Source: a virus. From it: DNA of 64,000 nt. Numbering within the stretch: the stretch's first letter is position 1; every line of letters starts with the position of its first letter. The DNA is taken from positions 62,001 through 126,000 of IMG/VR virus record IMGVR_UViG_3300036770_005682; one strand, written 5' to 3'. The translations under genes and the position numbers were made by a program. Positions 29,445 to 47,994 of this stretch are shown here, piece by piece. A model generated the notes under the pieces. It saw only the letters and a program-made list of their open reading frames with translations. It was not told where the DNA came from and did no database searches.

Positions 29445-29459
29445 GACGGTGGCGGAAGA
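29445..29459 (+). repeat. Cassette-boundary repeat 1
   Basis: GACGGTGGCGGAAGA, preceded by TTT. First of 16 copies. It separates the lipoprotein-like unit from the minus-strand unit 29646-29965. Confidence 0.75.
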
Positions 29460-29599
29460 GCGGGTTCGGGTCAGGGTTTTGTGCCAAACCTAGACGCTCA
29501 GAACGGCTCAGGCTGAAACGGGGTCACCGATACCGCAGAAGAGGACGAACTCCCGTGAGAGGGCGTGTGAGGGGGCTATCCGAGGCGTTTAGGGGCATG

Positions 29600-29632
29600 G
29601 CAAAGCCGACCCACCCAACTGGCAGGTCGGCT
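29600..29632 (-). terminator. Minus-strand terminator
   Basis: AGCCGACC/GGTCGGCT stem; ends the unit that starts at 29965. Confidence 0.6.
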
Positions 29633-29645
29633 CAACCGATAACTA

Positions 29646-29696
29646 CTAGACGAAGAACAGCGCAGTCAAGGCGATGACTACAACGATGGCGGTCAT
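29646..29696 (-). CDS. 16-residue hydrophobic micropeptide
   Basis: MTAIVVVIALTALFFV. Its ATG overlaps the stop of the upstream gene (ATGA), the classic coupling arrangement, and it ends just before the terminator. Confidence 0.55.
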   Translation of the reverse strand: MTAIVVVIALTALFFV

Positions 29697-29965
29697 GCTT
29701 GGGGAATACCCAAAGCGGCGAGCGTTGGGTGCGTTGAGTGTGTTTCTCCCTGTGCGTCTACCCACACAACAACATCACGACGAGGTGGTTCTTGCCCGCA
29801 TGGGTAAAAGGCTGCCTTGTGCCAACCCTTAGAGCCACAGTTGTCGCAGTAGCGTTCCCAGTCTTGCGGGTCGTCCCACCACGCATGAGTTGCGTAGTTC
29901 GCATCTGCTTCTTCTTGTGTCCCAGCGAAAGGGACTGGTTCGTTTATGAGTTGGATTACCTTCAT
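29693..29965 (-). CDS. Small zinc-ribbon-like protein
   Basis: A 90-residue protein starting MKVIQLINEPVPFAG, with YCDNCGSKGWHKAAFYPCG as a likely zinc site and a WVDAQGETHSTHP C-terminal strand. TACACT lies 7 nt before the ATG with TTGACT 17 nt further, so the mRNA is leaderless. Function unknown. Confidence 0.7.
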   Translation of the reverse strand: MKVIQLINEPVPFAGTQEEADANYATHAWWDDPQDWERYCDNCGSKGWHKAAFYPCGQEPPRRDVVVWVDAQGETHSTHPTLAALGIPQA

Positions 29966-29972
29966 GTTGTGA

Positions 29973-30001
29973 AGTGTACCTAGCACATCGCAGAAAGTCA
30001 A
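29973..30001 (-). promoter_or_regulatory. Leaderless promoter of 29965
   Basis: TTGACT, 17 nt, TACACT; 7 nt to the ATG. Confidence 0.8.
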
Positions 30002-30327
30002 GCGATGTCGGAAGAAACTTTCGAGACCTTCCTGGACGCCTGGCTGATGAACCCGATAGTCCCGTATCCCCAAGATGGGTATACGGGGCTGATGGCACGG
30101 GAAGGAAAACTTCCGGAGTTGACTTTTCACGGGCGGCTTGTTAGGTTATGCGTTTTGGTGTTTTGAGGTTTTTCACCACTTTTAGTGGTTTTTGAGCAAA
30201 GTTCGCCACGGAAAGTGGCGATTCCGAGAAAAACAACAAAACAACAACGAAGTTCTCGCCCGCCGAACGTGCGCTGAGCCGACATCAACTGGGTCGTCTG
30301 CGGGGCTGATGACCCAGTCACATTTAC
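30002..30327. other. Non-coding stretch with hairpins
   Basis: No gene seen. It contains CCCGTAT...ATACGGG around 30060-30085, ACCACTTTTAGTGGTTTTT (a terminator-like hairpin) and CGCCACGGAAAGTGGCG. The last two recur in diverged form near 30898-30950. Confidence 0.6.
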
Positions 30328-30342
30328 GACGGTGGCGGAAGA
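30328..30342 (+). repeat. Cassette-boundary repeat 2
   Basis: GACGGTGGCGGAAGA, 28 nt after a CGGGGCT word. The minus-strand unit 30387-30637 follows. Confidence 0.75.
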
Positions 30343-30345
30343 CGG

Positions 30346-30381
30346 GCAACAAGAAAGCCCGCCCCCTTTCGGAGACGGGCT
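30346..30381 (-). terminator. Minus-strand terminator
   Basis: AGCCCG/CGGGCT stem with CTTTCTTGTT on the minus strand. Confidence 0.65.
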
Positions 30382-30386
30382 CTTGG

Positions 30387-30437
30387 TCAAACTGCCAGCA
30401 GAAGAACAACTGCCAGCGTAATCACTAACGCTGTCAC
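30387..30437 (-). CDS. 16-residue hydrophobic micropeptide
   Basis: MTALVITLAVVLLLAV from a GTG 2 bases after the upstream stop (TAAgaGTG). Closely similar in pattern to the peptides at 29646 and 28779. Confidence 0.5.
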   Translation of the reverse strand: MTALVITLAVVLLLAV

Positions 30438-30439
30438 TC

Positions 30440-30637
30440 TTAGTTTGTGTCCCCCTCTTCGGGGGAAACGATGTAATCAACATCGCCCCAAACTATTTCG
30501 TGCTCTCGCACTGCTTTTACTTTTCCCAATTCGTTGGTGATGAGGTCAAGGTATGCCTCCACCTTCGCTTCTGCTTCACTTTCTGACTTTGCGTCAAAAG
30601 TGTGAACCATCAGCGTGATGTTCGCTATGTATTTCAC
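30440..30637 (-). CDS. Small protein, leaderless GTG start
   Basis: A 65-residue protein starting MKYIANITLMVHTFDAKS with a helical AEAEAKVEAYLDLI-type section and an acidic tail. GTG 30637 is chosen because the -10 element TACATT ends 6 nt before it; longer frames would contain the promoter. Confidence 0.6.
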   Translation of the reverse strand: MKYIANITLMVHTFDAKSESEAEAKVEAYLDLITNELGKVKAVREHEIVWGDVDYIVSPEEGDTN

Positions 30638-30643
30638 AGGTGG

Positions 30644-30672
30644 AATGTACACCCTGTACAACACAACGTCAA
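30644..30672 (-). promoter_or_regulatory. Leaderless promoter of 30637
   Basis: TTGACG, 17 nt, TACATT on the minus strand. Confidence 0.75.
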
Positions 30673-31053
30673 TGTGTTCTGCGTCACACCTACGTCCAGC
30701 CGATGACCTGTCGTTGCTGTGAGATGTCAGCCGCCGCAGCGATGACCAGCATCTCGTGGGCTGAGCCCCAGGTGGGCAAAAGCCCCGATGGGGTAATACC
30801 CCAGCACGGGGCTGCCAGGCGCAACCGGCCGGAAGGCCTCGATGGCCGGCCCTCCCCGAGTTATTCGAATAAGTTTTGGTCTTTGTCGAGCAAAAACGAC
30901 CACTTTTTGTGGTTTTTGGATAAATCCGACCACGGAAAGTGGTTTTTCCTAAAACTAAAACGGAAAAGTCGAGCTCAGCTCCTCGAGCTCACGTAGCTTC
31001 GCCAGCTATGCGGGGTTGTGGGGCGGGGCTCACAACCCCGACGCATCTACTTT
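30673..31053. other. Non-coding stretch with hairpins
   Basis: No gene seen. It includes a second version of the ACCAC...GTGG and CCACGGAAAGTGG hairpins (30898-30950), a GAGCTC-rich palindromic part and a strong hairpin CGGGGTTGTG/CACAACCCCG (about 31012-31041) enclosing CGGGGCT. Confidence 0.6.
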
Positions 31054-31068
31054 GACGGTGGCGGAAGA
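31054..31068 (+). repeat. Cassette-boundary repeat 3
   Basis: GACGGTGGCGGAAGA preceded by TTT, just after the CGGGGTTGTG hairpin. Boundary to the minus-strand unit 31156-31518. Confidence 0.75.
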
Positions 31069-31095
31069 CGGCTAGCGCACCTGAGCCGAGACAGC

Positions 31096-31135
31096 AACAA
31101 GCCCGCCGTGCGGGGGGAAGGGGCACGGCGGGCTT
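31096..31135 (-). terminator. Minus-strand terminator
   Basis: GCCCGCCGTGC/GCACGGCGGGC, 11-bp stem with TTGTTGCTG after it on the minus strand. Confidence 0.8.
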
Positions 31136-31155
31136 GTGCGATTGGTGAGAATGGA

Positions 31156-31518
31156 CTACTTCCAGCAGGCAGCGGAATAGACGACTTCGCTCAGGTTGTC
31201 GCAATAGACATCAAGCACTTCGTGCTCAACGACTAGCGTACCTTTCGCTTCGCCACGGTTCACGAGTCGGACACGGCGCACTTCGTACAGGTCTAGGTAG
31301 TTGAGTACCACCTCAACCGCACGACTCTCTCCGCACAGCATTAGCAAGCCAATGGTCACGCCATCGCTAGCGTTCACCTTTGCCCACTTTCCACCGCACA
31401 CAGCGAGAAAGGTCATCTTGCCCATTTGGGCTATGACCTCTTGCGGGTCGCAGTCACGACCTGAACGGTCAAGGTTGCGCAAGGCAATCAGAGACAGGTC
31501 GGTTTTCGTTGCTTTCAT
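31156..31518 (-). CDS. Hypothetical protein
   Basis: A 120-residue protein starting MKATKTDLSLIALRNLDRSG; AAAGGGGGTGAAGAA precedes the ATG. Cys at GRDCDP, AVCGG, MLCGE and VYCDN. Beta-rich C-terminal half (VRRVRLVNRGEAKGTLVVEH). Single-gene unit with its own promoter and terminator. Family unknown. Confidence 0.7.
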   Translation of the reverse strand: MKATKTDLSLIALRNLDRSGRDCDPQEVIAQMGKMTFLAVCGGKWAKVNASDGVTIGLLMLCGESRAVEVVLNYLDLYEVRRVRLVNRGEAKGTLVVEHEVLDVYCDNLSEVVYSAACWK

Positions 31519-31541
31519 TTCTTCACCCCCTTTCACCTTGC

Positions 31542-31570
31542 AGGGTACAAGTCGCAAGTGGGTAAGTCAA
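31542..31570 (-). promoter_or_regulatory. Promoter of 31518
   Basis: TTGACT, 17 nt, TACCCT on the minus strand. Confidence 0.75.
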
Positions 31571-31598
31571 TAGGACAAGTGTCACACTCGCCAGCCAG

Positions 31599-31646
31599 CC
31601 CGCCCGCACGCCCGCCCGCACGCCCGCCCGCACGCCCGTACGCACG
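31599..31646. repeat. 12-bp tandem repeat CCCGCCCGCACG
   Basis: About four head-to-tail units, the last diverged to CCCGTACGCACG. It sits between the promoter of 31518 and boundary repeat 4. Confidence 0.8.
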
Positions 31647-31701
31647 CGCGCGTAAGAGTCCCGGACGGGATTTATTCCCGACGGGGCTCCCGCACGGGAT
31701 T

Positions 31702-31716
31702 GACGGTGGTGGAAGA
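31702..31716 (+). repeat. Cassette-boundary repeat 4
   Basis: GACGGTGGTGGAAGA (C to T variant), 14 nt after CGGGGCTCCC. Confidence 0.75.
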
Positions 31717-31730
31717 GTTCCGATGCGGGC

Positions 31731-31766
31731 ACAAACAAAATGCCCGCCCCCTTGCGGAGACGGGCA
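31731..31766 (-). terminator. Minus-strand terminator
   Basis: TGCCCG/CGGGCA hairpin with ATTTTGTTTGT on the minus strand. Confidence 0.65.
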
Positions 31767-31783
31767 GTTCGTTGGAGTTTCAG

Positions 31784-32140
31784 TTAGCGGTCTGGATTCG
31801 GCGTTGCCTTCACCGTAAAAGTTCCGCTTGCATCGTGGTGGGCGAGGTGGCAAGTGAGCACTTTCGTTTCAGGGTCAAGCGAGTAACGCAATGACCATTC
31901 CGAACGGACAGTGATACTTTCCAACAACTTCATCGGAGTATCGGCGTGGAAAATGCCGTCTATCGTGCGTGCCCACAAAGGGAATCCTTCAATGCGCCAC
32001 CAAGTGTCGCCTTCGTGAAGTTCCTTGTTGTGTTCAAGCATGACTTCGGCAGTCATGGCAAACAAGTCTGTCGCCATGTCCCACTCCCACTCTTCGGAAG
32101 TGTTGCTTACCTCTTCCCACTCCAAGTCGGAGTCAAGCAT
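31784..32140 (-). CDS. Hypothetical acidic protein
   Basis: A 118-residue protein starting MLDSDLEWEEVSNTSEEW; AAAGGGGGGAG precedes the ATG. Acidic helical first half, then strands with DTWWRIEGFPLWAR and KVLTCHLAHHD. No family recognised. Own promoter and terminator. Confidence 0.7.
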   Translation of the reverse strand: MLDSDLEWEEVSNTSEEWEWDMATDLFAMTAEVMLEHNKELHEGDTWWRIEGFPLWARTIDGIFHADTPMKLLESITVRSEWSLRYSLDPETKVLTCHLAHHDASGTFTVKATPNPDR

Positions 32141-32170
32141 GACTCCCCCCTTTCATGAGTTGAGAATGAC

Positions 32171-32199
32171 AGACTACCGACTTAGTAGCGATTAGTCAA
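32171..32199 (-). promoter_or_regulatory. Promoter of 32140
   Basis: TTGACT, 17 nt, TAGTCT on the minus strand. Confidence 0.75.
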
Positions 32200-32216
32200 G
32201 TAGGCATCGTGTGACA

Positions 32217-32276
32217 TTAGGCACTTCCGAGTAAGACGATAAGAATAAGGACTACAAAGATAGGCACTAATGACAT
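32217..32276 (-). CDS. 19-residue hydrophobic micropeptide
   Basis: MSLVPIFVVLILIVLLGSA. Unlike the others it is not coupled to an upstream gene; it lies upstream of the promoter for 32140 and lacks a clear ribosome-binding site, so it is less certain. Confidence 0.35.
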   Translation of the reverse strand: MSLVPIFVVLILIVLLGSA

Positions 32277-32389
32277 GACAGCAACTTACCGCACCTGAGC
32301 CGAAAAAACAACAACCCGATGTCGGCGATGTCGGGATGGGACGGGAGCCCCGGAGGCCCGCTGCCGGCCCACGGGGCTAACGGGTATCC
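32277..32389. other. Non-coding boundary segment
   Basis: No gene seen. It contains the inverted pair AGCCCCG ... CGGGGCT (about 32346-32377) directly before boundary repeat 5. Confidence 0.6.
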
Positions 32390-32404
32390 GACGGTGGCGG
32401 AAGA
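32390..32404 (+). repeat. Cassette-boundary repeat 5
   Basis: GACGGTGGCGGAAGA, 13 nt after the AGCCCCG/CGGGGCT inverted pair. Confidence 0.75.
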
Positions 32405-32465
32405 AGGGCTCGCACTTCTCGTCGGGCTGACTTGGTCTGCTCAGTTTCAGTCGTGCTGTTTCGTG

Positions 32466-32542
32466 CGAACGCCTGTTCGGGTCGTGAGACGCTCTGCCCC
32501 TGTGTGTCTCATGCGAACACCTGTTCGGCGAACATCTGTTCT
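32466..32542. promoter_or_regulatory. Three tandem LexA (SOS) boxes
   Basis: CGAACGCCTGTTCG (32466-32479), CGAACACCTGTTCG (32514-32527) and CGAACATCTGTTCT (32529-32542). All fit the actinobacterial CGAAC-N4-GTTCG palindrome, the last with one end base changed. They lie 15-90 bp upstream of the next promoter. Confidence 0.75.
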
Positions 32543-32556
32543 GTGACAAACGACAC

Positions 32557-32585
32557 TTGCAATGTGTCCTTGACACCTGTACCCT
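32557..32585 (+). promoter_or_regulatory. Promoter for 32720
   Basis: TTGCAA, 17 nt, TACCCT; preceded by three SOS boxes. Confidence 0.65.
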
Positions 32586-32719
32586 ACTAGGTGGGACAAC
32601 CTGCCCGCCTAGCCTGTGGTGAAGCGACCTGCGTCACGGGGGGAACTAGAAAAGGTAGGGGGTGCGCCGTAGGGAAGGCGTACCTGTCCCACTCAACATA
32701 AGAACCGAGAAGGGGAACC

Positions 32720-32896
32720 ATGACACGCAAAGATTATGTCTTGCTTGCCAGTCATCTCCGCTACGCTCGTACGGGCGTTTCCGTCTCTCTGCTTGCAGGG
32801 TTTGACGAAGCCGTAGAAGCAATAGCGGACGCACTCGCAAGTGAGAACCACCGTTTTGACCGCGATAAGTTTTTGGAAGCGGTGAACCCGAACTAA
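32720..32896 (+). CDS. Small conserved phage protein (MTRKDY type)
   Basis: A 58-residue protein: MTRKDYVLLASHLRYART, then FDEAVEAIADALASEN and RFDRDKFLEAVN. This form is common among small phage and plasmid-borne proteins; its function is unknown. GAAGGGGAACC precedes the ATG. If the SOS boxes act, it would be DNA-damage induced. Strong terminator follows. Confidence 0.75.
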   Translation: MTRKDYVLLASHLRYARTGVSVSLLAGFDEAVEAIADALASENHRFDRDKFLEAVNPN

Positions 32897-32920
32897 ACAT
32901 TCCCAACACCACAGGCACAG

Positions 32921-32955
32921 AAAGCCCCATGCCGTTTGGCGTGGGGCTTTTTGTT
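32921..32955 (+). terminator. Rho-independent terminator
   Basis: AAAGCCCCA/TGGGGCTTT with an inner GCC/GGC and a TTTTTGTTT tail. Confidence 0.85.
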
Positions 32956-33054
32956 TGCCCTCAACTCCCAGTCGGAACACCTCGCCAGATGGCTTTGATG
33001 GCATCTGGTAGCCCCGGAAGCCGTGCGGCAGCAACGGGGCTCCCACAGGAGTGC

Positions 33055-33069
33055 GACGGTGGTGGAAGT
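33055..33069 (+). repeat. Cassette-boundary repeat 6
   Basis: GACGGTGGTGGAAGT, 14 nt after AGCCCCG-N18-CGGGGCT. Boundary to the plus-strand unit 33186-34699. Confidence 0.7.
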
Positions 33070-33149
33070 CCCCTGGTCTCCGCCTCTCCTCGCCTACCTC
33101 GCCCGCTGTCATCATTCGTCTGTCTCAAACTGATGTGACAAACGTCATG

Positions 33150-33178
33150 TTGTGATGTGTACCTGACAGGTGTAGTGT
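33150..33178 (+). promoter_or_regulatory. Leaderless promoter of 33186
   Basis: TTGTGA, 17 nt, TAGTGT, then 7 nt to the ATG. Confidence 0.75.
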
Positions 33179-33185
33179 GCTATGT

Positions 33186-33773
33186 ATGGAAACAGCAACG
33201 AAGGAAGCCATAGCACTACGGGTGCTTGCCGAATACTGGCAGACAGATGTAGCCCCAATGGTGAACCCACGAGCCTGTGTGCTTGCTGGACGCTTGGCGA
33301 CTGTTGTGCTTGGTCGCATCGGCATTTCCACCGCCGTCTACCACACCGACACCGTTGCTATGAATGACCTGTGGTACAACCTGTTCATCGTCAAGGGGCT
33401 TGGTCAGCAGTTCCTTCCCCCTGAGGCATGGTGTGTTGGTGCTGTCACCGCAGATGTCAAGGGAACGCACAGCACGATGGTTGGCGGTTTCAGCGGTCAC
33501 CTTGTTGTGACAACCCCGCACCACTTTGTAGACCTGAGCGCAAGCCAGTTTGACCGTCCCTCACATGACATCGTGACTGGCTCGCCACTCATCGTCCCCC
33601 GTGAGAACATCACAGACACGCCACATGGCAAGATGGTTCCGATACAGCGTGGTGTTTACATCACGAAGCCTGCCGAGAACCCTGCGTCATACCAATGGAC
33701 ACCCGACTGGCAGACCAACTACAAGACCTTTGCGAAGCCACTCATCACCCGCCTGCGGGAGATGTTCTCGTGA
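33186..33773 (+). CDS. Hypothetical protein with Cys-His-Asp arrangement
   Basis: A 195-residue protein starting METATKEAIALRVLAEYW. AWCVGAVTADVKG, GGFSGHLVVTT and FVDLSASQFDRPS place a Cys, His and Asp in an order seen in transglutaminase/papain-like folds. That reading is only suggestive. It leads a plus-strand unit of four further coupled genes. Confidence 0.65.
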   Translation: METATKEAIALRVLAEYWQTDVAPMVNPRACVLAGRLATVVLGRIGISTAVYHTDTVAMNDLWYNLFIVKGLGQQFLPPEAWCVGAVTADVKGTHSTMVGGFSGHLVVTTPHHFVDLSASQFDRPSHDIVTGSPLIVPRENITDTPHGKMVPIQRGVYITKPAENPASYQWTPDWQTNYKTFAKPLITRLREMFS

Positions 33774-34027
33774 CCGTACGAGACTGGTACGAGTTTGTGG
33801 AAACGGACTTGGAGAACTACGAGCGTGAGAAGTTTCGTGAGATGCTGTCCGACATCGGCTTTGATGACCTGTATGTGGAACGCACCGATGACCACGGCAT
33901 TTGCTACTTGTGCGAGCGTGATGGAGTGTTGTACCTTGTAATGAACAGAGGACAACTGCGTGAGACAAATGCCTACTACCTTTGCTCTACCTGTACTAAC
34001 GAGATGAAGCGAAAGACCGAAGAATGA
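33770..34027 (+). CDS. Small zinc-ribbon protein
   Basis: An 85-residue protein from GTG 33770 (overlapping the previous stop). CYLC near 45 and CSTC near 72 form a four-Cys zinc ribbon; the N-terminal part is acidic and helical. Coupled to its neighbours by 4-base overlaps. Confidence 0.7.
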   Translation: MTVRDWYEFVETDLENYEREKFREMLSDIGFDDLYVERTDDHGICYLCERDGVLYLVMNRGQLRETNAYYLCSTCTNEMKRKTEE

Positions 34028-34182
34028 CCGGAATGTTGTATTCGCAGCGCAACGCACACTCATGCCCGTGGGGGTGCTGTGGCGATTTCGTCAAGGGTCG
34101 TGGAACGAAGCACCGCTGTAAGAAGTGGCATCGCATCTTGCGTACCCGTGAGAAGCGCAACTGGAAGAAAGAGGAATGGTGA
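34024..34182 (+). CDS. Small basic Cys/His protein
   Basis: A 52-residue very basic protein: MTGMLYSQRNAHSC then PWGCCGDF and HRCKKWHRILRTRE. A zinc knuckle with a basic tail suggests nucleic-acid binding. ATG overlaps the previous stop; its end overlaps the next start by 7 bases. Confidence 0.6.
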   Translation: MTGMLYSQRNAHSCPWGCCGDFVKGRGTKHRCKKWHRILRTREKRNWKKEEW

Positions 34183-34649
34183 CTGCACCCGAATACGAAA
34201 GTTGGTGGGACAGCGATGCTGGCAAGCCCGCCAGTCTCTGCGATGCCTGCGGGCAGAAGCAACTACTAACCCAACAGACATCGCCCGCCCTTCCTGATGG
34301 GGGCTGGATTATGGAGTTTGAGCATTTCGGCTATTACGGCGGGTTCTCTGACGACATTGAGGTTGCGTTTGGCAAGCGAGACAGTAACTCATGGTCGCTT
34401 TGCCATGACTGCGTTGTGAAGTTCTTTGAGACATTCCCTGCGCTAGCGGAGAAGTTCGGTCGGGGGCACCACCCCAACTTCATTCACACAGACGACCTGC
34501 CGTACAGTGAGCGAGGCACATCTAGCCCGTCATGCTGTCGCTTTGCGTGGACATGGAATGTGACCGTTGAGAACGGAGAGAAGGTCTACGAGACTTTCTA
34601 CGGAGATGGCACAGGTGGCTGGGTTGCCCAGTCTAAGGAGCGAGTCTGA
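34176..34649 (+). CDS. Zinc-ribbon hypothetical protein
   Basis: A 157-residue protein. CDACGQK near 22-28 and CHDC near 75-78 form a likely zinc site, followed by a Gly/aromatic-rich part (FYGDGTGGW). No family recognised. Its stop overlaps the micropeptide start. Confidence 0.65.
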   Translation: MVTAPEYESWWDSDAGKPASLCDACGQKQLLTQQTSPALPDGGWIMEFEHFGYYGGFSDDIEVAFGKRDSNSWSLCHDCVVKFFETFPALAEKFGRGHHPNFIHTDDLPYSERGTSSPSCCRFAWTWNVTVENGEKVYETFYGDGTGGWVAQSKERV

Positions 34650-34699
34650 TGGTTGTCAGCATCGTCGCCCTGATAGCCATCCTTCTGCTGTTGTCCTAG
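34649..34699 (+). CDS. 16-residue hydrophobic micropeptide
   Basis: MVVSIVALIAILLLLS. ATG overlaps the upstream stop (TGATG). It is the last gene of the plus-strand unit and its stop touches the stop of the convergent zinc-finger gene. Confidence 0.55.
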   Translation: MVVSIVALIAILLLLS

Positions 34700-34908
34700 A
34701 ACAGCATTTCCCCGCTACTGCCCTCTTTCTTTTTTCTGCTTGTCTCTGTCTCTACGCAGATGGAGTGGGCGTACTTGTGCTGGTTCTTCACGCCCCTGAT
34801 GCCTGTGTTGTTGTCACGCACCCACGCCAACACGAGTTTCATAGTTCCACTTTGGTTCGGAACTACCTCTTGGTCACAGAACTCACATCGGAAGCGAACG
34901 TACGACAT
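34696..34908 (-). CDS. Small basic zinc-finger protein
   Basis: A 70-residue protein starting MSYVRFRCEFCDQEVV with a second Cys/His pair in HKYAHSIC and a Lys-rich tail. ATG 34908 is fixed by a leaderless promoter (TATTAT 7 nt upstream). Probably a DNA- or RNA-binding regulator. Confidence 0.65.
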   Translation of the reverse strand: MSYVRFRCEFCDQEVVPNQSGTMKLVLAWVRDNNTGIRGVKNQHKYAHSICVETETSRKKKEGSSGEMLF

Positions 34909-34915
34909 TATGGAA

Positions 34916-34944
34916 ATAATACCGGCCGGGGCTCCCGAGCGCAA
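34916..34944 (-). promoter_or_regulatory. Leaderless promoter of 34908
   Basis: TTGCGC, 17 nt, TATTAT. The spacer contains the CGGGGCTCCC word that precedes boundary repeat 7. Confidence 0.65.
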
Positions 34945-34957
34945 CAGCATCTTCTTT

Positions 34958-34972
34958 GACGGTGGTGGAAGA
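34958..34972 (+). repeat. Cassette-boundary repeat 7
   Basis: GACGGTGGTGGAAGA preceded by TTT, after CCGGGGCTCCC. Confidence 0.75.
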
Positions 34973-34989
34973 AGCCCCTGAACGGGGAC

Positions 34990-35024
34990 AGCAGAAAGCC
35001 CACACCCGTTTCCGAGTGTGGGCT
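34990..35024 (-). terminator. Minus-strand terminator
   Basis: AGCCCACAC/GTGTGGGCT with TTTCTGCTGT on the minus strand. Confidence 0.75.
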
Positions 35025-35047
35025 GACTGTTGGAAGCGAGTTGTGCG

Positions 35048-35503: not shown

Positions 35504-35533
35504 TTGTTCCCCTTTCGTAGTGGTGACAGTTAC

Positions 35534-35562
35534 ACACTACACAGAACACAAACAAATGTCAA
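35534..35562 (-). promoter_or_regulatory. Promoter of 35503
   Basis: TTGACA, 17 nt, TAGTGT on the minus strand. Confidence 0.8.
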
Positions 35563-41764: not shown

Positions 41765-41988
41765 TCGCTGAACACTTTTTTGTCGTAGATGCGTAGGGCA
41801 TTTACGGCAAGGCTGGTCACGGCGCACTTCCAGTAAGGTGCGTTCCAGTCTGTGATGTCAGACGAACGCAAGAACCACAGCACAACCCACAGCACTCCGC
41901 CGTAAATAGAACCCGCAAGTCCAGCCCCTGCTAGCGTAACTAAGAACGCTGGTTTGGGGCTGTTTGTTATCTCAGGGTGTTTAGGCAT
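41761..41988 (-). CDS. Small two-helix membrane protein
   Basis: A 75-residue protein with FLVTLAGAGLAGSIYGG and VLWVVLWFL as membrane segments, and a basic end. It starts inside the end of the HTH gene (8-base overlap) and ends at the first base after repeat 11. Confidence 0.6.
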   Translation of the reverse strand: MPKHPEITNSPKPAFLVTLAGAGLAGSIYGGVLWVVLWFLRSSDITDWNAPYWKCAVTSLAVNALRIYDKKVFSD

Positions 41989-42355: not shown

Positions 42356-42444
42356 AGTCTTGACATTACTCGACCGGCCACCGGCTGCGGCGGAACCGGC
42401 TTGACAGCCCCGCGATGCGGCCGCCAGCTTCCGGGGCCCCTGAT

Positions 42445-42459
42445 GACGGTGGTGGAAGA
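42445..42459 (+). repeat. Cassette-boundary repeat 12
   Basis: GACGGTGGTGGAAGA after AGCCCCG ... CCGGGGCCC. Confidence 0.75.
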
Positions 42460-42493
42460 CAGGGCCGGCCCTCGAGAAAGTTTTCGCCACGTG

Positions 42494-42522
42494 TTGCATT
42501 TGTCAGTTGTACTGGGTAGTGT
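42494..42522 (+). promoter_or_regulatory. Promoter of 42555
   Basis: TTGCAT, 17 nt, TAGTGT. Confidence 0.65.
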
Positions 42523-42554
42523 GACGGCACCACTTCACAAGGAAGGAGAAGGAA

Positions 42555-42764
42555 ATGGAAACCTATGACAAAGAAGCAGTAGAGAAACTGCAACCAGAGA
42601 AAGCACGGGGGGAAGTGGGAGTGCTCTCAATGGAAGGACTAGATGTCGGCGTCAAAATCGCAGACGTTCGTGTCCGCTTCGGTCATATTGATTACCTAGT
42701 CAAGCCACTCAACGGCAAGGGCGAGGTATGGGTGGAGCGCCACCGTGTCAAAGTGATGGCGTGA
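42555..42764 (+). CDS. Small beta-rich protein
   Basis: A 69-residue protein starting METYDKEAVEKLQPEKAR, with alternating strands (VGVKIADVRVRFGHIDYLV). AAGGAAGGAGAAGGAA precedes the ATG. No family recognised. Confidence 0.65.
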   Translation: METYDKEAVEKLQPEKARGEVGVLSMEGLDVGVKIADVRVRFGHIDYLVKPLNGKGEVWVERHRVKVMA

Positions 42765-42774
42765 CAAACGTCAC

Positions 42775-42803
42775 TTGACAAACTGGCTTGTGGGGTGTAG
42801 CGT
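42775..42803 (+). promoter_or_regulatory. Promoter of the 42845-44705 operon
   Basis: TTGACA, 17 nt, TAGCGT. The same word family (GTGACAAACGTCA) precedes it and the 33186 promoter. Confidence 0.75.
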
Positions 42804-42844
42804 GTACCCCACAAGTCACTACTTATCTATTAGCAAGGGGAACA

Positions 42845-42994
42845 ATGTCAGACGAACTGACCTACTGGAACTGCCACAAGTGCAAGGACACTTGGGAGCC
42901 GTACTACGGCATGCTGAGCATCAAAGACGATGTCACGCCCGCCATCATCATCTACACCTGCATCAACTGTATGCCAGACGACGAGGAGGAATGA
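42845..42994 (+). CDS. 49-residue zinc-ribbon protein
   Basis: MSDELTYWNCHKCKDTW with CINC near 40 gives a C-x2-C ... C-x2-C ribbon. AAGGGGAACA precedes the ATG. First gene of a seven-gene coupled operon. Confidence 0.7.
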   Translation: MSDELTYWNCHKCKDTWEPYYGMLSIKDDVTPAIIIYTCINCMPDDEEE

Positions 42995-43155
42995 TGCGTA
43001 CCCTCATCATCACACTCACCACACCCGACGAGATTGACCCATCAGAGGTCGCTGAAATCATGGTTGACGACTTTTACTACTCAAACCGTGCTACCGAGGA
43101 CTTCGGCCCGCACATGGAGGAGATTCTCATCTCATGGAAGGAAGAAGAGAAATGA
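42994..43155 (+). CDS. Small acidic protein
   Basis: A 53-residue protein, MRTLIITLTTPDEIDPSEVA, then helical and acidic. GAGGAGGA lies right upstream; ATG 42991 is an alternative. Overlaps both neighbours by 1-4 bases. Confidence 0.6.
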   Translation: MRTLIITLTTPDEIDPSEVAEIMVDDFYYSNRATEDFGPHMEEILISWKEEEK

Positions 43156-43472
43156 GAGCCATAGCAAGCGCTCCGATGCGCATCATGCCCATTACTGAAG
43201 CGATAGAAATCCGCTTCAGTTCCACGTCATACAAAGGCGACGTCACAAAATGGCAACTGCTCGCCAGCGTGAACACAAACGGCACCATCTCCTACACGCT
43301 TCACCGTGTTCCCCGTGCCTCGTACGGTTACTCATTGACCAGCCTTGTGGGTACCTCTCGTGTGATTCTTCCGATGAAGGCCTACGATGGGTGGCACGGC
43401 GATGTTCTTGAGTGGGTTCGTGACCACACTCTGTCAGGCAAGACCGTCTACGAGATTGAGAAGGTGCTCTAA
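43152..43472 (+). CDS. Hypothetical protein
   Basis: A 106-residue basic protein from ATG 43152, with IEIRFSSTSYKGDVTKW and aromatic strands LHRVPRASYGYSLTS. No family recognised. Stop and next start overlap (TAATG). Confidence 0.65.
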   Translation: MRAIASAPMRIMPITEAIEIRFSSTSYKGDVTKWQLLASVNTNGTISYTLHRVPRASYGYSLTSLVGTSRVILPMKAYDGWHGDVLEWVRDHTLSGKTVYEIEKVL

Positions 43473-43930
43473 TGGCTACGCGTTCTGTTGTCGCTCGCTT
43501 GACTGAAAGCGGTATTGAGGGTCGCTACGTTCATTGGGATGGTTACCCCATCCACATGATGACAGCGCTCTACGAGTTGATTCGCCGTGACGGCTACGAG
43601 ACCGTCACACGTGTTCTTCTTGACGAACACGACGGGTGGTCATCCATCAACCCGTTCCAAGAAGAAGACGACGACACGATTGGACACGTGGAGACGCTTG
43701 AGTACTGGGGCAAGTACTACACGGACACACCGAACGAACCATTCTTCACGACATTGAGCGAGGCGTACGACGCTTGGGCGGAATACGTGTACATCATCGT
43801 CGCAGAGGGTGAACAGCCTGTGGAGATTCGCTGTTACCGCCAAGACACAGACGAACCGATTCAGGTGATGCAGGTGCTGTGCGACCATGAATACGACTCG
43901 TACTGTGCGAACTGCGGGGTGGACTCATGA
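43472..43930 (+). CDS. GRYVHWDGYP-type phage protein
   Basis: A 152-residue protein. GIEGRYVHWDGYPIHMMTALYEL is a signature seen in several small phage proteins of unknown function. The C-terminus ends CDHEYDSYCANCG, a possible zinc site. In operon with its neighbours. Confidence 0.7.
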   Translation: MATRSVVARLTESGIEGRYVHWDGYPIHMMTALYELIRRDGYETVTRVLLDEHDGWSSINPFQEEDDDTIGHVETLEYWGKYYTDTPNEPFFTTLSEAYDAWAEYVYIIVAEGEQPVEIRCYRQDTDEPIQVMQVLCDHEYDSYCANCGVDS

Positions 43931-44070
43931 AAGATTTGATTGAGGAAATCATCAACATTCTCAACTTGCCTGGTGAGCAATACACAGACGGCGAATGCCT
44001 GGACCTCATCGCAGAGTTGTTGACGGAAAATGGATTTGAAGTTTTTGAGGAGCAGAATGAAAGCGCATGA
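43927..44070 (+). CDS. 47-residue acidic protein
   Basis: Opens MKDLIEEIINILNLPG and is helical and acidic. ATGA overlap with the previous gene; the next gene starts 14 bases before its stop. Confidence 0.55.
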   Translation: MKDLIEEIINILNLPGEQYTDGECLDLIAELLTENGFEVFEEQNESA

Positions 44071-44308
44071 ACTCATCAAGCAATTGATGGAACTTCCGCC
44101 AGACGAGCCCGTCTGTGCACTCGTGTGGACAAAAGCAGAGTTTGATTTCAACGACGAGTATGACGAGTTGGAATTGACCCCCGAGGGTTGGCAAAAGGTC
44201 TGCGACGACTTCTACAGTTCCCTGAACGTGCTGTGCCACACGATTGACGAAAGTCTCAACAACGCAGTATTGGACTACGCAATAGAAAAGAGTTTTGATG
44301 CCGAGTGA
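44057..44308 (+). CDS. Hypothetical acidic protein
   Basis: An 83-residue protein starting MKAHELIKQLMELPPDEPVC, a form seen in small phage proteins (LIxxLxxLPPDxPV). AGGAGCAG precedes the ATG. Function unknown. Confidence 0.65.
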   Translation: MKAHELIKQLMELPPDEPVCALVWTKAEFDFNDEYDELELTPEGWQKVCDDFYSSLNVLCHTIDESLNNAVLDYAIEKSFDAE

Positions 44309-44705
44309 ACAAGTACTCGTAAACGACGACGGGGAAATCCAATGCATATGCATGAACGAGCCGTCGTGGGATGGGTTCAGCGCATGCCACCGCAATGGCC
44401 AAGTGGATGACAATCTGCTTTCAAAGCACAACGTCGACAGCGTCTACTACCTGTGTCAGCGCTGTGGCCGAATCATTAACGAAACAACCCTCGAGGTTGT
44501 GGCAGTGCTGCAGTCAGATGAAGAAAATTTTGATGACCTGTTCACTGCGGCCGTCGGGATGAAGGAACGTGCACACCGCATAGCCCAGCAGGCGCTGGAG
44601 GAGAAACCATGGAACGTCGAGGAAATGATGGGTGACCTCTCGAGTATCGAGCGACTTCTGGTGTGCCTCCAGAAGGTGAAACTCCAGGAGCTCCAAACGT
44701 TCTGA
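44298..44705 (+). CDS. Hypothetical Cys-rich protein
   Basis: A 135-residue protein with CICMNEPSW, ACHRNGQ and YLCQRCGRI, giving several potential zinc ligands in the N-terminal 60 residues, followed by a helical C-terminal part. Last gene of the operon, ending 10 bases before boundary repeat 13. Confidence 0.65.
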   Translation: MPSEQVLVNDDGEIQCICMNEPSWDGFSACHRNGQVDDNLLSKHNVDSVYYLCQRCGRIINETTLEVVAVLQSDEENFDDLFTAAVGMKERAHRIAQQALEEKPWNVEEMMGDLSSIERLLVCLQKVKLQELQTF

Positions 44706-44714
44706 CAACTCTTT

Positions 44715-44729
44715 TACGGTGGTGGAAGA
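44715..44729 (+). repeat. Cassette-boundary repeat 13
   Basis: TACGGTGGTGGAAGA in the extended context GACAACTCTTTTACGGTGG, shared with repeat 14. Confidence 0.75.
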
Positions 44730-44758
44730 GGTTGTAATTACATAACGAAGTAGCTATT

Positions 44759-44998
44759 ATGACTAAACAAATGCTGACGCCTGATATGACGCTCCGCTCG
44801 ACACTGTGCGAGCTCAAGAAATTTGAACACCCTCCAGTGAGCCGCTTTAAATTAGGCAGTCCTTGTCGTTTCATCCGAACAATTGACATATTTGTCCACA
44901 TCGTTATCCCCGAACTTGTGGAAAAACCTTTTCCACATCTCGCGCGATATCTGCGCAACACATCCCCTCGCTGGGGCCGCAGCTGGCGGCACTGGTAA
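44759..44998 (+). CDS. Possible small protein overlapping DnaA-box cluster
   Basis: A 79-residue frame starting MTKQMLTPDMTLRSTLCELK. CGAAG lies before the ATG. The second half overlaps the DnaA-box palindrome, and its composition (HLARYLRNTSPRWGRSWRHW) is odd, so this may be a shorter gene or a non-coding region. Confidence 0.4.
   Translation: MTKQMLTPDMTLRSTLCELKKFEHPPVSRFKLGSPCRFIRTIDIFVHIVIPELVEKPFPHLARYLRNTSPRWGRSWRHW
44892..44937. promoter_or_regulatory. Cluster of DnaA-box-like sites
   Basis: TTGTCCACA (44892-44900), TGTGGAAAA (44917-44925) and TTTTCCACA (44929-44937). The last two form an inverted pair with a 3-nt gap. The first equals the actinobacterial DnaA-box consensus. Confidence 0.5.
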
Positions 44999-45015
44999 CT
45001 ACAGAAAGGAAAACC

Positions 45016-45324
45016 ATGTTTGACGACATGCCCAACCCATACGAAGACCTCTATATCTGGGATTCCCTGGAGAAACGCGGCTTCCCTATCGGCTCGGCCG
45101 TGCAATGCATTCATCTCAACGCACCAGGCGTACGTGAGGTAATTGTCAACGGAGACCCCGAAGCAATCCAGACTCTCATGAATTCCGAGGGCCGTGAGCT
45201 CAGCGAAACCATGGTCGAGGTCCTGAAGACGTTCGTCGGAATCATGTTCAAGGTTTACGCTGACCAGCCAGACGAAAAGCGGATGGAAATCCTCGAGTAC
45301 ATCAAAGGCCTGGCTGGCCAATGA
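45016..45324 (+). CDS. Hypothetical acidic protein
   Basis: A 102-residue protein starting MFDDMPNPYEDLYIWDSL; AGAAAGGAAAACC precedes the ATG. Alpha/beta, no family recognised. Its stop overlaps a micropeptide start. Confidence 0.7.
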   Translation: MFDDMPNPYEDLYIWDSLEKRGFPIGSAVQCIHLNAPGVREVIVNGDPEAIQTLMNSEGRELSETMVEVLKTFVGIMFKVYADQPDEKRMEILEYIKGLAGQ

Positions 45325-45377
45325 TGGCCACATTAATATTCGCTGCGGCGGTAGTAGCGCTATTCACGTGTAACTGA
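45321..45377 (+). CDS. 18-residue hydrophobic micropeptide
   Basis: MMATLIFAAAVVALFTCN. Start overlaps the upstream stop (ATGA), with a second in-frame ATG next to it. Confidence 0.55.
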   Translation: MMATLIFAAAVVALFTCN

Positions 45378-45396
45378 TGTGGTACCATCCCGGACC

Positions 45397-45573
45397 ATGT
45401 CGAAAAGATTTATCTGGAAATGCCCCAAGTGCTCGAACAAGCTCGAGGTGCGTGTGTCTTTGTCGACCGCCCCAGTCTGTGCGAACAAGAAAAGTCACAC
45501 CTCGAAGCCCCAGGTCATGGAGCTCATCGAGGGCGGCGAAGGGGCCATCGTTAAAAAACCAGCCAATAAATAA
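45397..45573 (+). CDS. Small zinc-ribbon protein
   Basis: A 58-residue protein: MSKRFIWKCPKCSNKLEVRV, then TAPVCANKKSHTSKP. CxxC plus a later Cys/His is a common small actinophage zinc-ribbon type. TACCAT lies 8 nt before the ATG, a possible leaderless start. Confidence 0.7.
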   Translation: MSKRFIWKCPKCSNKLEVRVSLSTAPVCANKKSHTSKPQVMELIEGGEGAIVKKPANK

Positions 45574-45589
45574 TCACTGACAACTCTTT

Positions 45590-45604
45590 TACGGTGGCGG
45601 AAGA
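45590..45604 (+). repeat. Cassette-boundary repeat 14
   Basis: TACGGTGGCGGAAGA in the context GACAACTCTTTTACGGTGG; its right edge is 15 nt before the next ATG. Confidence 0.75.
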
Positions 45605-45618
45605 CCTAGTATTACTGC

Positions 45619-46104
45619 ATGAACACAACCGCATACAACATCGAAACCTGGAATGATGGGGCCGCCGCTGCGGCAGAGAAGATATTCGACTTCCCAGTCC
45701 CCCACCCCGGTTTATCCATCATCGAGCTCCGGTCGAGCTTCACAAAGATGGAAGATTATTTCGCCCGTCATGAAAACAGTGGCATGTTCTCTATTGCCTG
45801 GTCAGACGTAGGCAACGTAGCTGCGCGCTATGCCGCTAATAGCGGCCATCGCTTTACGCAGGATGAGCTAGTTGAGACATTAGTTCGCAAGCAACGTGAC
45901 TACGGTCATAATAATATTCTCCGTTTTGGCACGTATGGCGTCATCGTCCGCTGCCACGACAAAATCGCACGCCTCGAGCACCTCCTCGAGAACGGCAAGA
46001 CACCCCAGAACGAATCAATCAAAGACAACTTGATGGACGTCGCCGGCTACGCGGCAATTGGCATCATGCTCAACCATGGATGGTTCGAAAAAGAGCTGAA
46101 GTGA
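45619..46104 (+). CDS. DUF1599 / nucleotide-modification-associated-domain-like protein
   Basis: A 161-residue protein. VRKQRDYGHNNILRFGTYG, then RCHDKIARLEHLLENG and a DNLMDVAGYAAIGIML stretch match the Nmad1/DUF1599 pattern, a helical domain predicted to act on nucleotides (MazG-like bundle). TAGTAT lies 6 nt before the ATG, so it is probably leaderless. Confidence 0.75.
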   Translation: MNTTAYNIETWNDGAAAAAEKIFDFPVPHPGLSIIELRSSFTKMEDYFARHENSGMFSIAWSDVGNVAARYAANSGHRFTQDELVETLVRKQRDYGHNNILRFGTYGVIVRCHDKIARLEHLLENGKTPQNESIKDNLMDVAGYAAIGIMLNHGWFEKELK

Positions 46105-46108
46105 GGGG

Positions 46109-46150
46109 AGTCTCAGCGCAGCCAACCTACCCACAAACCGCGCTGAGACT
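46109..46150 (+). terminator. Hairpin terminator
   Basis: AGTCTCAGCGC/GCGCTGAGACT, 11-bp perfect stem, without a clear T tract. Confidence 0.65.
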
Positions 46151-46200
46151 CTAACCCTCGTGAGGGGAAGGGGACCCTCGAGGTCCAGGTTACACCATTA

Positions 46201-46214
46201 CGAACACATGTTCG
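46201..46214. promoter_or_regulatory. LexA (SOS) box
   Basis: CGAACACATGTTCG, an exact CGAAC-N4-GTTCG palindrome, 400 bp before the candidate replication genes. Confidence 0.7.
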
Positions 46215-46256
46215 GGGATGCCGGGGCTCCCACCCACGTTGCGCTCATTAACATTT

Positions 46257-46271
46257 GACGGTGGCGGATGA
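46257..46271 (+). repeat. Cassette-boundary repeat 15
   Basis: GACGGTGGCGGATGA preceded by TTT, after CCGGGGCTCCC. Confidence 0.7.
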
Positions 46272-46279
46272 CCCCAAAA

Positions 46280-46634
46280 AAATTTCCCGAATCTGCTTGC
46301 AGCCGCCACACCCTCCTGCTACAGTTCCTCCCACAACCGAAGGCCGGCCTAAAACCTTCACTTTCAACGTTGCCCAAATCCAGCAACGTTATTTGTGTTG
46401 CCCCAACTCATGTTTTTTACCCCTGCCGCCTAGTGGGGGGGACTACAGGGGGGGGGTAAGTCACCTTACTGAACAATAATTGCGTTCTAGTACATCAGCT
46501 AGCGCTGATTGTTCTAGAAGCGTGAAATAACTTGAAGTTCTATAGTTCTTGAGTAAGGTAAGTCATAGTTAGTACTACAACTCCCCTACCAGTATGTTGT
46601 AGTACCAATGGTCGCGTAGAAGGAGTAAGTAATT
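46280..46634. other. Repeat-rich non-coding region, candidate replication origin
   Basis: No gene seen. It contains AACGTTGC/GCAACGTT (46366-46390), long C and G runs, CCTTACT ... AGTAAGG, four GTTCTAG-like words between about 46480 and 46555, ATCAGC/GCTGAT, and GTACTACAAC/GTTGTAGTAC. It ends at the ribosome-binding site of the 46635 gene. Density of short repeats next to putative replication genes suggests an origin. Confidence 0.5.
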
Positions 46635-46991
46635 TTGGCGCGGAAAAAATTGTCCGATAAAAAAGTTCCGGTAGAAAACCTCCCATACTTTTCCTCCGTA
46701 ACAGAAGATTCGGTATTTCAGGTTTTCACTATTTGGGTGGATACTTTTTGGTCCGGACGCGGACGACGTCCTGAGTTGACGCATAGCCGGCGCGACGCCA
46801 TCACTCGAGGAATAGCTGGACATGGCCTCCAGAAGGCTATTAAGGCCGTACGGGGCTGTTCACAGTCCGAGTTCCACATGGGCGGGAACGACCTGGGGAA
46901 GCAGTACACGTCGCTCGAGCTCATCTTCCGCGATGACTGGCGCATCAAGAAATTCGCTAGCATGTACAAACCGACGGTGGAGGAAGAATGA
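46635..46991 (+). CDS. Candidate replication-associated protein
   Basis: A 118-residue basic protein from TTG 46635 behind AAGGAGTAAGTAATT. VFTIWVDTFWSGRGRRPELT, then SRRDAITRGIAGHGLQ and LELIFRDDWRIKKFA resemble small actinophage proteins encoded next to helicase-loader genes. DNA binding is likely. Its last codons (GACGGTGGAGGAAGA, 46973-46987) are one base off the boundary repeat. It overlaps the next gene. Confidence 0.6.
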   Translation: MARKKLSDKKVPVENLPYFSSVTEDSVFQVFTIWVDTFWSGRGRRPELTHSRRDAITRGIAGHGLQKAIKAVRGCSQSEFHMGGNDLGKQYTSLELIFRDDWRIKKFASMYKPTVEEE

Positions 46992-47458
46992 CCAAGGATG
47001 AAGTAGTCAAAGCAGTAGAACTTCTCTACTCGCACTGGAATGACCGCCTGCCCAGCTCAGATGCCCCCAAGAAGGCCGCTCTGCGTGCCTGGGCCGAGTT
47101 TCTTATTGACCTTGACTACGAAGCCGTCGTCCGAGCCATATCGCACGCAGCCGTCTACGACACGTACATGCCGCGTCCAGGTCAGATTCGGAAAGCCGTA
47201 CTCCAGGAGTGCAGCCAATTACCAATCCCCCCGACTCCCGTGGAGGCTTGGGGTCAAGTTCGCTCTCTATGCGAATCAGTAGCGACTGGGACTTACAGCG
47301 AAGATAGCTTTCATCCCTGCGTGCTCGCCACAGTACGACAAATGGGAGGCATCGCCGGCGTCTCAGTGAACACAAACGGGGACCGAACATACTTCTTGGA
47401 AGCGTATCAGGAGCAAGTACGAGCCTGGGAAAAGCTCCACTATAAACTGATTCCGTGA
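46988..47458 (+). CDS. Putative helicase loader (G39P-like)
   Basis: A 156-residue protein. The N-terminal helical domain with LYSHWNDRLPSS, AWAEFLIDLDYEAVVRAI and YMPRPGQIRKAVLQ matches the shape of phage helicase loaders/inhibitors (four-helix domain followed by a flexible tail). It would bring the replicative helicase to the origin. ATGA overlap with the previous gene. Confidence 0.55.
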   Translation: MTKDEVVKAVELLYSHWNDRLPSSDAPKKAALRAWAEFLIDLDYEAVVRAISHAAVYDTYMPRPGQIRKAVLQECSQLPIPPTPVEAWGQVRSLCESVATGTYSEDSFHPCVLATVRQMGGIAGVSVNTNGDRTYFLEAYQEQVRAWEKLHYKLIP

Positions 47459-47472
47459 ATTAACATCTTGCC

Positions 47473-47652
47473 ATGCGCAAGAGGATGGGCCGACCGGCCA
47501 AACACGCTGCCGGCGACACGACGATTACTTTACGCGTCCCTGCCGACATCAAGAACCGGATTGTCGACATGGCAGACGCTTACGACATGACGATTACCGA
47601 GTACCTCTTGACACTTGTGGAGAGAGATGTCTCGGACACCCCAGCGCGCTGA
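47473..47652 (+). CDS. Ribbon-helix-helix protein, copy 1
   Basis: A 59-residue protein: MRKRMGRPAKHAAG, then TITLRVPADIKNRIVDMADAY and MTITEYLLTLVERD, a complete RHH domain. Likely autoregulator or DNA-binding factor. It overlaps the next RHH gene by 26 bases. Confidence 0.7.
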   Translation: MRKRMGRPAKHAAGDTTITLRVPADIKNRIVDMADAYDMTITEYLLTLVERDVSDTPAR

Positions 47653-47965
47653 GTTACCAGACGGTAAGTACAACCTCGTCGTCCAGATACCGGGCTGGCT
47701 GAAGAACGAGATACTCGACGCCTGCGGGGACGCGAGAATCAACCAGTGGGTTTCGACGGTGTTGTATGAGGCTGTGCGCGAAGCACGCGGCCTGCCGCCT
47801 GCGCCGCCACCAGCCGCGCCGAAGCCGACGACTGCCGACCAGATACGGGCCTACATGGTTGGTGAAACACTGCTCCAACCGTGTGGGAAGACCGACTGCG
47901 AACCAGTCTGGCAGGAAATACAAAACATGCAGTTTTGTGAAAAATGCGGTGTGCGGGGTATCTAG
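47627..47965 (+). CDS. Ribbon-helix-helix-like protein with zinc tail, copy 2
   Basis: A 112-residue protein. YNLVVQIPGWLKNEILDACG and INQWVSTVLYEAVREARG form an RHH-like unit; a Pro/Ala linker leads to CGKTDC and CEKCG, a probable zinc ribbon. GGAGAG precedes the ATG. The layout mirrors the RHH-zinc protein at 17470. Confidence 0.65.
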   Translation: MSRTPQRAELPDGKYNLVVQIPGWLKNEILDACGDARINQWVSTVLYEAVREARGLPPAPPPAAPKPTTADQIRAYMVGETLLQPCGKTDCEPVWQEIQNMQFCEKCGVRGI

Positions 47966-47979
47966 CGCCCTTTATTCAC

Positions 47980-47994
47980 CACGGTGGCGGAAGT
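47980..47994 (+). repeat. Cassette-boundary repeat 16
   Basis: CACGGTGGCGGAAGT, two bases from consensus. Last copy; separates the plus-strand replication unit from the minus-strand late block. Confidence 0.65.

What the first reader, a model, noticed from the sequence alone, without database searches (positions are those of the whole stretch)
29445..47994. Sixteen plus-strand copies of GACGGTGGCGGAAGA alternate with single transcription units
The 15-nt element occurs at 29445, 30328, 31054, 31702, 32390, 33055, 34958, 35709, 37150, 38022, 41746, 42445, 44715, 45590, 46257 and 47980, always in the same orientation while the genes run both ways. Most intervals hold one transcription unit with its own promoter and often its own terminator. 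Many copies follow an AGCCCCG-N18-CGGGGCT inverted pair or a CGGGGCTCCC word. No -10 element follows at the right distance, so it is not simply a promoter. It could be a cassette-exchange (recombination) site, a stoperator-like repressor site or an RNA-processing signal.
Basis: partly seen in the sequence, partly recalled or inferred. Interest (0 to 1): 0.92.

Follow-up and report, generated by a model that had tools for sequence, protein, structure and literature searches.

The report
One-way repressor sites bounding phage cassettes
Uncultivated phages, probably of freshwater actinobacteria, carry many copies of a one-way 16-letter DNA signal tightly linked to a previously undescribed phage DNA-binding protein, and the genes between the signals are reshuffled among phages, suggesting an unrelated version of the mycobacteriophage 'stoperator' control system that also marks where genes are traded.

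Summary
The repeat is real and far beyond chance: 17 copies with at most 2 mismatches, all plus strand, all at 29.4-48.0 kb. About 30 related IMG/VR phages carry it too, one-way and clustered. Cassettes between copies are reordered among three related phages, with breaks enriched at the element, yet no tyrosine or serine recombinase is detectable in 21 records. The decisive find is a 124-aa protein at 41981-42355(-): HA domain plus sigma-region-4-like HTH. A motif-blind search for its relatives returned 78 loci holding 415 elements on the strand opposite the gene and 13 on the same strand; in the loci new to the motif scan the element was rediscovered as the most strand-biased 9-mer. Only about 8% of copies have a -10 at promoter spacing. 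In relatives, copies lie in largely co-directed operons and the regulator is often the lone opposing gene. Best reading: asymmetric operator/'stoperator' sites of a new regulator family, working like mycobacteriophage L5 repressor sites but with a protein showing no detectable similarity, and doubling as recombination joints. Binding and repression are inferred, not shown. No cultured phage in the collection has the protein. New variant of a known kind.

The parts
29445..29459 (+). element, exact; left edge of the cassette array
30328..30342 (+). element, exact; hairpin with CGGGGCT loop at about 30290-30320
31054..31068 (+). element, exact; hairpin with CGGGGCT loop at about 31011-31041
31702..31716 (+). 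element, 1 mismatch
32390..32404 (+). element, exact; AGCCCCG (32346) / CGGGGCT (32372) pair upstream
33055..33069 (+). element, 2 mismatches; AGCCCCG (33010) / CGGGGCT (33035) pair upstream
34958..34972 (+). element, 1 mismatch; cassette join: left flank matches G005 site 5636, right flank matches G005 site 8738
35709..35723 (+). element, exact
37150..37164 (+). element, exact; cassette join: left flank matches G005 site 8738, right flank matches G005 site 5636
38022..38036 (+). element, exact; right edge of the reordered part
41746..41760 (+). element, exact; near the 3' side of the regulator gene pair, inside the 3' end of a plus-strand reading frame
41981..42355 (-). regulator gene, 124 aa: HA domain (PF03457) plus sigma-70 region 4-like HTH (PF04545); proposed binder of the element
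42445..42459 (+). element, 1 mismatch; 90 bp upstream of the regulator start codon
44715..44729 (+). element, 2 mismatches; TAATTA follows at -10 spacing
45590..45604 (+). element, 1 mismatch; in the likely promoter of the gene starting at 45619
46257..46271 (+). element, 1 mismatch
47980..47994 (+). element, 2 mismatches; last strong copy
29460..38021 (.). reordered cassette stretch: nine intervals whose order differs in G005 and G027
38037..48758 (.). stretch collinear with G005, including AAA-ATPase (38953-39693) and a 510-aa partner (39699-41231)

Best explanation
The element ([T/C]GACGGTGG[T/C]GGA[A/T]GA) is the asymmetric binding site of a phage-encoded two-domain DNA-binding protein (HA domain plus sigma-region-4-like HTH; 41981-42355 minus). 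In most places it is not a promoter. Like the stoperators of L5-type mycobacteriophages, bound protein would block transcription moving in the element's direction, while a minority of copies sit in promoters as true operators. In many relatives, copies are spread through largely co-directed genes and the regulator gene faces the other way with copies beside it, which suggests autoregulation. In this phage's lineage the region is an array of small units in both directions; there the one-way element, often behind a CGGGGCT word or hairpin and a T-rich stretch, would insulate units from plus-strand read-through, and the repeated patch is where units are exchanged, probably by homologous recombination. 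Shown: the repeat, its polarity, its linkage to the gene, the scarcity of -10s, and cassette reordering with breaks enriched at it. Inferred: binding, repression of elongation, autoregulation, insulation and the recombination mechanism.
For: Motif-blind search with the protein: 415 elements opposite versus 13 same strand in 78 loci, reversed control 2 and 4. On 64 loci whose contigs the motif scan had not found: 277 versus 12, and TGACGGTGG is the most strand-biased 9-mer. Homologues in nearly all motif-bearing phages, always on the opposite strand. Two DNA-binding domains suit a long asymmetric site. An element lies within 400 nt of the regulator in 36 of 44 loci with at least 4 elements. Element and protein variants co-vary, r 0.47, 0 of 5000 permutations. 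TANNNT at 17-bp spacing in only 8% of 329 elements. Genes around elements 618 with, 91 against in 26 relatives. Cassette reordering with ends enriched at elements.
Against: No binding or transcription data. G028 and G020 keep elements but lack the protein. In 16 of 78 protein loci the element shows no excess on the opposite strand. All these phages are related, so part of the linkage and co-variation may be shared ancestry. In this window 11 genes oppose the element, so blocking plus-strand elongation would not repress them directly. No sign of lysogeny: no integrase or resolvase, ParA-like matches in only 2 of 10 records.
Confidence: 0.6

Rival explanations
1. Cassette-exchange (integron-like) site: the element is primarily a site-specific recombination site at which single-unit cassettes are inserted, excised and reordered, as attC sites are in integrons.
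For: One-way sites between units; units reordered among G000, G005 and G027 with orientation kept; 17 of 96 alignment ends within 15 nt of an element versus 4.9 by chance.
Against: No tyrosine or serine recombinase detected in 21 records; the best-linked protein has no catalytic domain; in many relatives the same element lies inside co-directed operons and inside gene ends; many alignment ends are not at elements.
Confidence: 0.15
2. Activated promoter element: the HA-sigma4 protein is an activator or sigma-like factor that directs RNA polymerase to start transcription at the element, with TTGACG as the -35 box.
For: TTGAC start of the site; HTH resembles sigma region 4 bound to -35 DNA; some copies have an extended -10 at 17 bp and a leaderless ATG; genes mostly run with the element in relatives.
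Against: TANNNT at the right spacing in only 8% of 329 elements; in this window many copies precede a minus-strand gene and would drive antisense RNA.
Confidence: 0.12
3. Polar DNA-level site, such as a replication, packaging or segregation signal, whose direction relates to the genome rather than to transcription.
For: Orientation is constant whatever the gene direction in this window; copies are clustered in one region of each record.
Against: In relatives the direction agrees with most genes; copies are largely between genes; the linked protein looks like a transcription factor.
Confidence: 0.08

Closest known systems
L5-clade (cluster A) mycobacteriophage repressor and its operator/stoperator sites (PMC9283540, PMC6550527)
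   Same: Many short asymmetric sites per genome, a few in promoters and most not, predominantly one orientation relative to transcription; binder with two different DNA-binding domains; site variants co-vary with the protein.
   Different: Site sequence and protein differ; no L5-type repressor among PDB chains matched by the regulator profile. Sites are confined to one region here, the regulator is always on the strand opposite the sites, and in this lineage sites bound reshuffled units in both directions. Lysogeny and repression not shown.
Promoter early stem-loops (PeSLs) of T4-type phages, the 'mobile regulatory cassettes' of modular shuffling (own knowledge; the paper is cited by holdings but was not read)
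   Same: Repeated intergenic regulatory patch, partly with a hairpin, that coincides with shuffled gene modules.
   Different: PeSLs carry an early promoter; here most copies lack a -10 and the element keeps one direction even beside opposing genes.
Integron gene-cassette arrays with attC sites (own knowledge)
   Same: One-way sites between small units that are reordered among relatives, units about 0.6-0.9 kb.
   Different: No integrase found; the core does not read as paired GTTRRRY / RYYYAAC boxes; units have own promoters.
Start-associated sequences of cluster K mycobacteriophages (PMC3203893; details from own knowledge)
   Same: Short asymmetric repeated intergenic element in actinophages.
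   Different: Those lie directly before start codons; here most copies do not.

Membership tests
L5-type stoperator system | Many asymmetric sites per genome, most outside promoters | tested here: met
   17 copies in the window; -10 at promoter spacing in 8% of 329 elements
[quoted passage not shown]
   Met in most of the 26 relatives (618 genes with, 91 against); in this window 28 with, 11 against
L5-type stoperator system | Binder is a homologue of the L5-clade repressor | tested here: inconclusive
   Profile search of PDB chains at E up to 1 returned no mycobacteriophage repressor, but L5, Bxb1 and DD5 records were not held, so no direct alignment was made
L5-type stoperator system | Protein binds the site and halts elongation in one orientation only | not testable with these tools
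   Needs gel shift and reporter assays
L5-type stoperator system | Temperate phage with immunity | tested here: inconclusive
   No integrase or resolvase in 21 records; ParA-like match in 2 of 10; records may be incomplete
Integron | Tyrosine-recombinase integrase encoded with the array | tested here: not met
   PF00589 absent in 21 records, found in 14 of 14 controls
Integron | One-way sites bounding mobile single-gene units | tested here: met
T4 PeSL mobile regulatory cassettes | Repeated patch contains a promoter | tested here: not met
   -10 in 8% of elements only
HA-domain protein with sigma-70 region 4 HTH | Both domains above or near curated cut-offs | tested here: met
   HA 59.5 bits (cut-off 28.4), Sigma70_r4 26.4 bits (cut-off 24.1)

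The most novel reading that the evidence does not exclude
The binding site of a new two-domain phage regulator doubles as the joint of a modular gene-cassette array: because every site is one-way and insulating, a foreign unit that recombines in at any site arrives already shielded from operon read-through and under the phage regulator, giving these phages an integrase-free counterpart of an integron.
Probability: 0.35. Interest if true: 0.85.

Novelty: new variant of a known kind. Interest (0 to 1): 0.72.

Why it matters
Sites that halt elongation are known from the cluster A mycobacteriophage type of repressor. A second, apparently unrelated protein family with the same one-way, many-site layout would show that this mode of control arose more than once, and would supply a named regulator and a 16-bp site for testing why orientation matters. 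It also offers a concrete, regulator-linked substrate for gene mosaicism in a large group of phages with no cultured member in the collection searched.

Tried and rejected
Promoter reading: rejected for most copies. Integrase or resolvase: none found. Known RNA family: Rfam finds only tRNAs in the window. General RNA hairpin upstream: strong hairpins before some copies (fraction with z below -2 is 0.25), but the downstream control is 0.28 and mean z is -1.2 against -0.84, so structure is not general. Hairpin formed by the core itself: not supported when variants are read by eye. DNA relatives among cultured phages: none by megablast; none by tblastn with two regulator variants. Alternative element in GC-rich homologue-bearing contigs: repeats such as CACCTACTAACGAAAGA found, but they look like leader or start-associated repeats. 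Direct comparison with the L5-clade repressor: records not held. One search used a made-up placeholder sequence and is void.
Full report
OBSERVATION. The 15-mer is present at all 16 stated places (8 exact, 8 with one or two mismatches) and at one more (46973), all on the plus strand between 29.4 and 48.0 kb; 22 matches at up to three mismatches compare with 1.8 expected, and none of 100 shuffles reached that. The window is positions 62001-126000 of a 137,811-base virus record, in which the pattern has 18 forward and 1 reverse matches at up to two mismatches, with the reversed control giving none. WhiB-like and proteasome-like genes just right of the array point to an actinobacterial host; freshwater origin is an inference.

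GENES. A home-made codon-statistics gene call shows small proteins, nearly all without Pfam families, in intervals many of which are 630-870 bp. Most short intervals hold one gene, longer ones up to eight. Genes run both ways (28 with the element, 11 against). Several plus units have their own TTGACA-type box and several minus units a terminator-like hairpin (read; the consensus scan gives only a modest excess over shuffles).

RELATIVES BY MOTIF. A scan of IMG/VR with TTTGACGGTGGYGGAAGA gave 72 stretches. In 29 of 30 of those records examined all copies lie on a single strand, clustered in one region; one record has one weak stray. Megablast against cultured phages finds nothing.

CASSETTE REORDERING. 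Comparing this phage with records G005 and G027, the part from 38 to 48.8 kb is collinear with G005, whereas the units from 29.4 to 38.0 kb are permuted: numbering by G005, G027 reads 1,2,3,7,4,5,6,x,8,9 and this phage reads (1/2),3,4,7,x,5,9,8,6. Junction alignments show left flanks conserved up to the element and right flanks conserved from shortly after it (for example 34958 and 37150). Of 96 alignment ends in this stretch 17 lie within 15 nt of an element, against 4.9 for random positions and at most 13 in 2000 trials; further starts cluster 30-50 nt upstream. Many ends are elsewhere, as expected with about 70% identity. No tyrosine or serine recombinase domain is detectable in 21 records (controls 14 of 14 and 10 of 14). 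Homologous exchange between repeated patches is therefore the simpler account.

THE PROTEIN. Profile search of the fetched loci shows that almost every element-bearing phage encodes a homologue of the 124-aa protein at 41981-42355 minus, on the strand opposite the element. Pfam gives an HA domain (E 3.9e-16) and Sigma70_r4 (E 4.9e-6, above the curated cut-off). The predicted structure (mean pLDDT 86, pTM 0.56) has two helical parts joined by a low-confidence stretch; whole-model fold matches are weak (no E below 0.001), but the C-terminal part aligns with sigma region 4 bound to -35 DNA (3n97, target TM 0.75). Invariant residues include R108, Q109, R110, H112 and Q113. No homologue was found in 50,697 cultured-phage records. 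Ten prokaryote genome contigs were hit; L206 and L207 carry 6 and 11 opposite-strand elements and are probably phage contigs in bins.

INDEPENDENT TEST OF THE LINK. Searching IMG/VR with the protein alone gave 78 newly fetched loci. They hold 415 elements on the strand opposite the gene and 13 on its own strand; the reversed control pattern gives 2 and 4. Leaving out loci on contigs known from the motif scan, 64 loci hold 277 and 12, and an unbiased count of strand-biased 9-mers ranks TGACGGTGG and CGGTGGCGG first. In 36 of 44 loci with at least four elements one lies within 400 nt of the regulator, often 86-143 nt upstream, or 20-49 or 235-273 nt downstream. Variants of element and protein co-vary (r 0.47, 0 of 5000 permutations), though shared ancestry alone could give some of this.

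NOT MAINLY A PROMOTER. In 329 non-redundant elements the core is [T/C]GACGGTGG[T/C]GGA[A/T]GA preceded by a T-rich stretch; TANNNT at the 17-bp spacing occurs in 8%. A few copies do sit in likely promoters of leaderless genes (45590 here). In 26 relatives the genes around the elements mostly run with them (618 against 91), and the regulator is often the only opposing gene. This resembles the layout described for L5-type stoperators: many asymmetric sites, some in promoters, predominantly oriented with transcription, bound by a monomer with two DNA-binding domains, and inactive when reversed (PMC9283540, PMC6550527).

EXCEPTIONS. G028 and G020 have seven elements each but no detectable regulator; at the syntenic place in G028 there is a different short reading frame. 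Mycobacteriophage D29, described as a deletion derivative of a temperate parent (PMC5712189, abstract), is a possible parallel. In sixteen protein-bearing loci, mostly GC-rich, the element shows no excess on the opposite strand; some have other repeats.

HAIRPIN. CGGG[GA]CT or AGYCCCG lies within 55 nt upstream of 114 of 329 elements but downstream of 2. Some sit in strong hairpins whose arms differ from cassette to cassette, but folding is overall little stronger than in the downstream control. With the T-rich stretch it might act as a plus-strand terminator in part of the cases; this is not established.

CONCLUSION. The feature is best read as the oriented operator/stoperator set of a new HA-sigma4 regulator family, used in this lineage also as the joint of a reshuffled cassette array. 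Linkage, polarity and reordering are shown; binding, repression and the exchange mechanism are inferred.

Noticed in passing
L175, L162, L189, strand opposite the HA-sigma4 gene: A different one-sided repeat, about CACCTACTAACGAAAGA, lies just before start codons (9, 11 and 7 copies) in contigs that have the regulator homologue but not the element; it looks start-associated.
   Followed up: partly
L146: CGGTGCCGATTT-like word, 9 copies on one strand, in a homologue-bearing contig without the element; possibly a diverged site, some copies in coding DNA.
   Followed up: no
L111 (G028:27000-46900), 9711-9984: Syntenic place of the regulator holds a different short reading frame although seven elements are kept.
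   Followed up: partly
window 28661-46857: Extra CGGGGCT words without a following element (28661, 28692, 29215, 30084, 30807, 46851), most of them near inverted repeats.
   Followed up: no
window 31600-31650: Short tandem repeat of about CCCGCCCGCACG just upstream of the element at 31702.
   Followed up: no
window 62422-63903 (-): Tryptophan-halogenase-like protein in a phage (PHROG hit E 3.7e-107).
   Followed up: no
window 5503-16848 (-): Twelve tRNA genes, all on the minus strand.
   Followed up: no
window 48001-48973 (-): WhiB-like and proteasome-subunit-like reading frames next to the array.
   Followed up: no
window 38953-41231 (+): AAA-ATPase (MoxR-like) followed by a 510-aa partner, kept next to the array in all compared relatives.
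   Followed up: no
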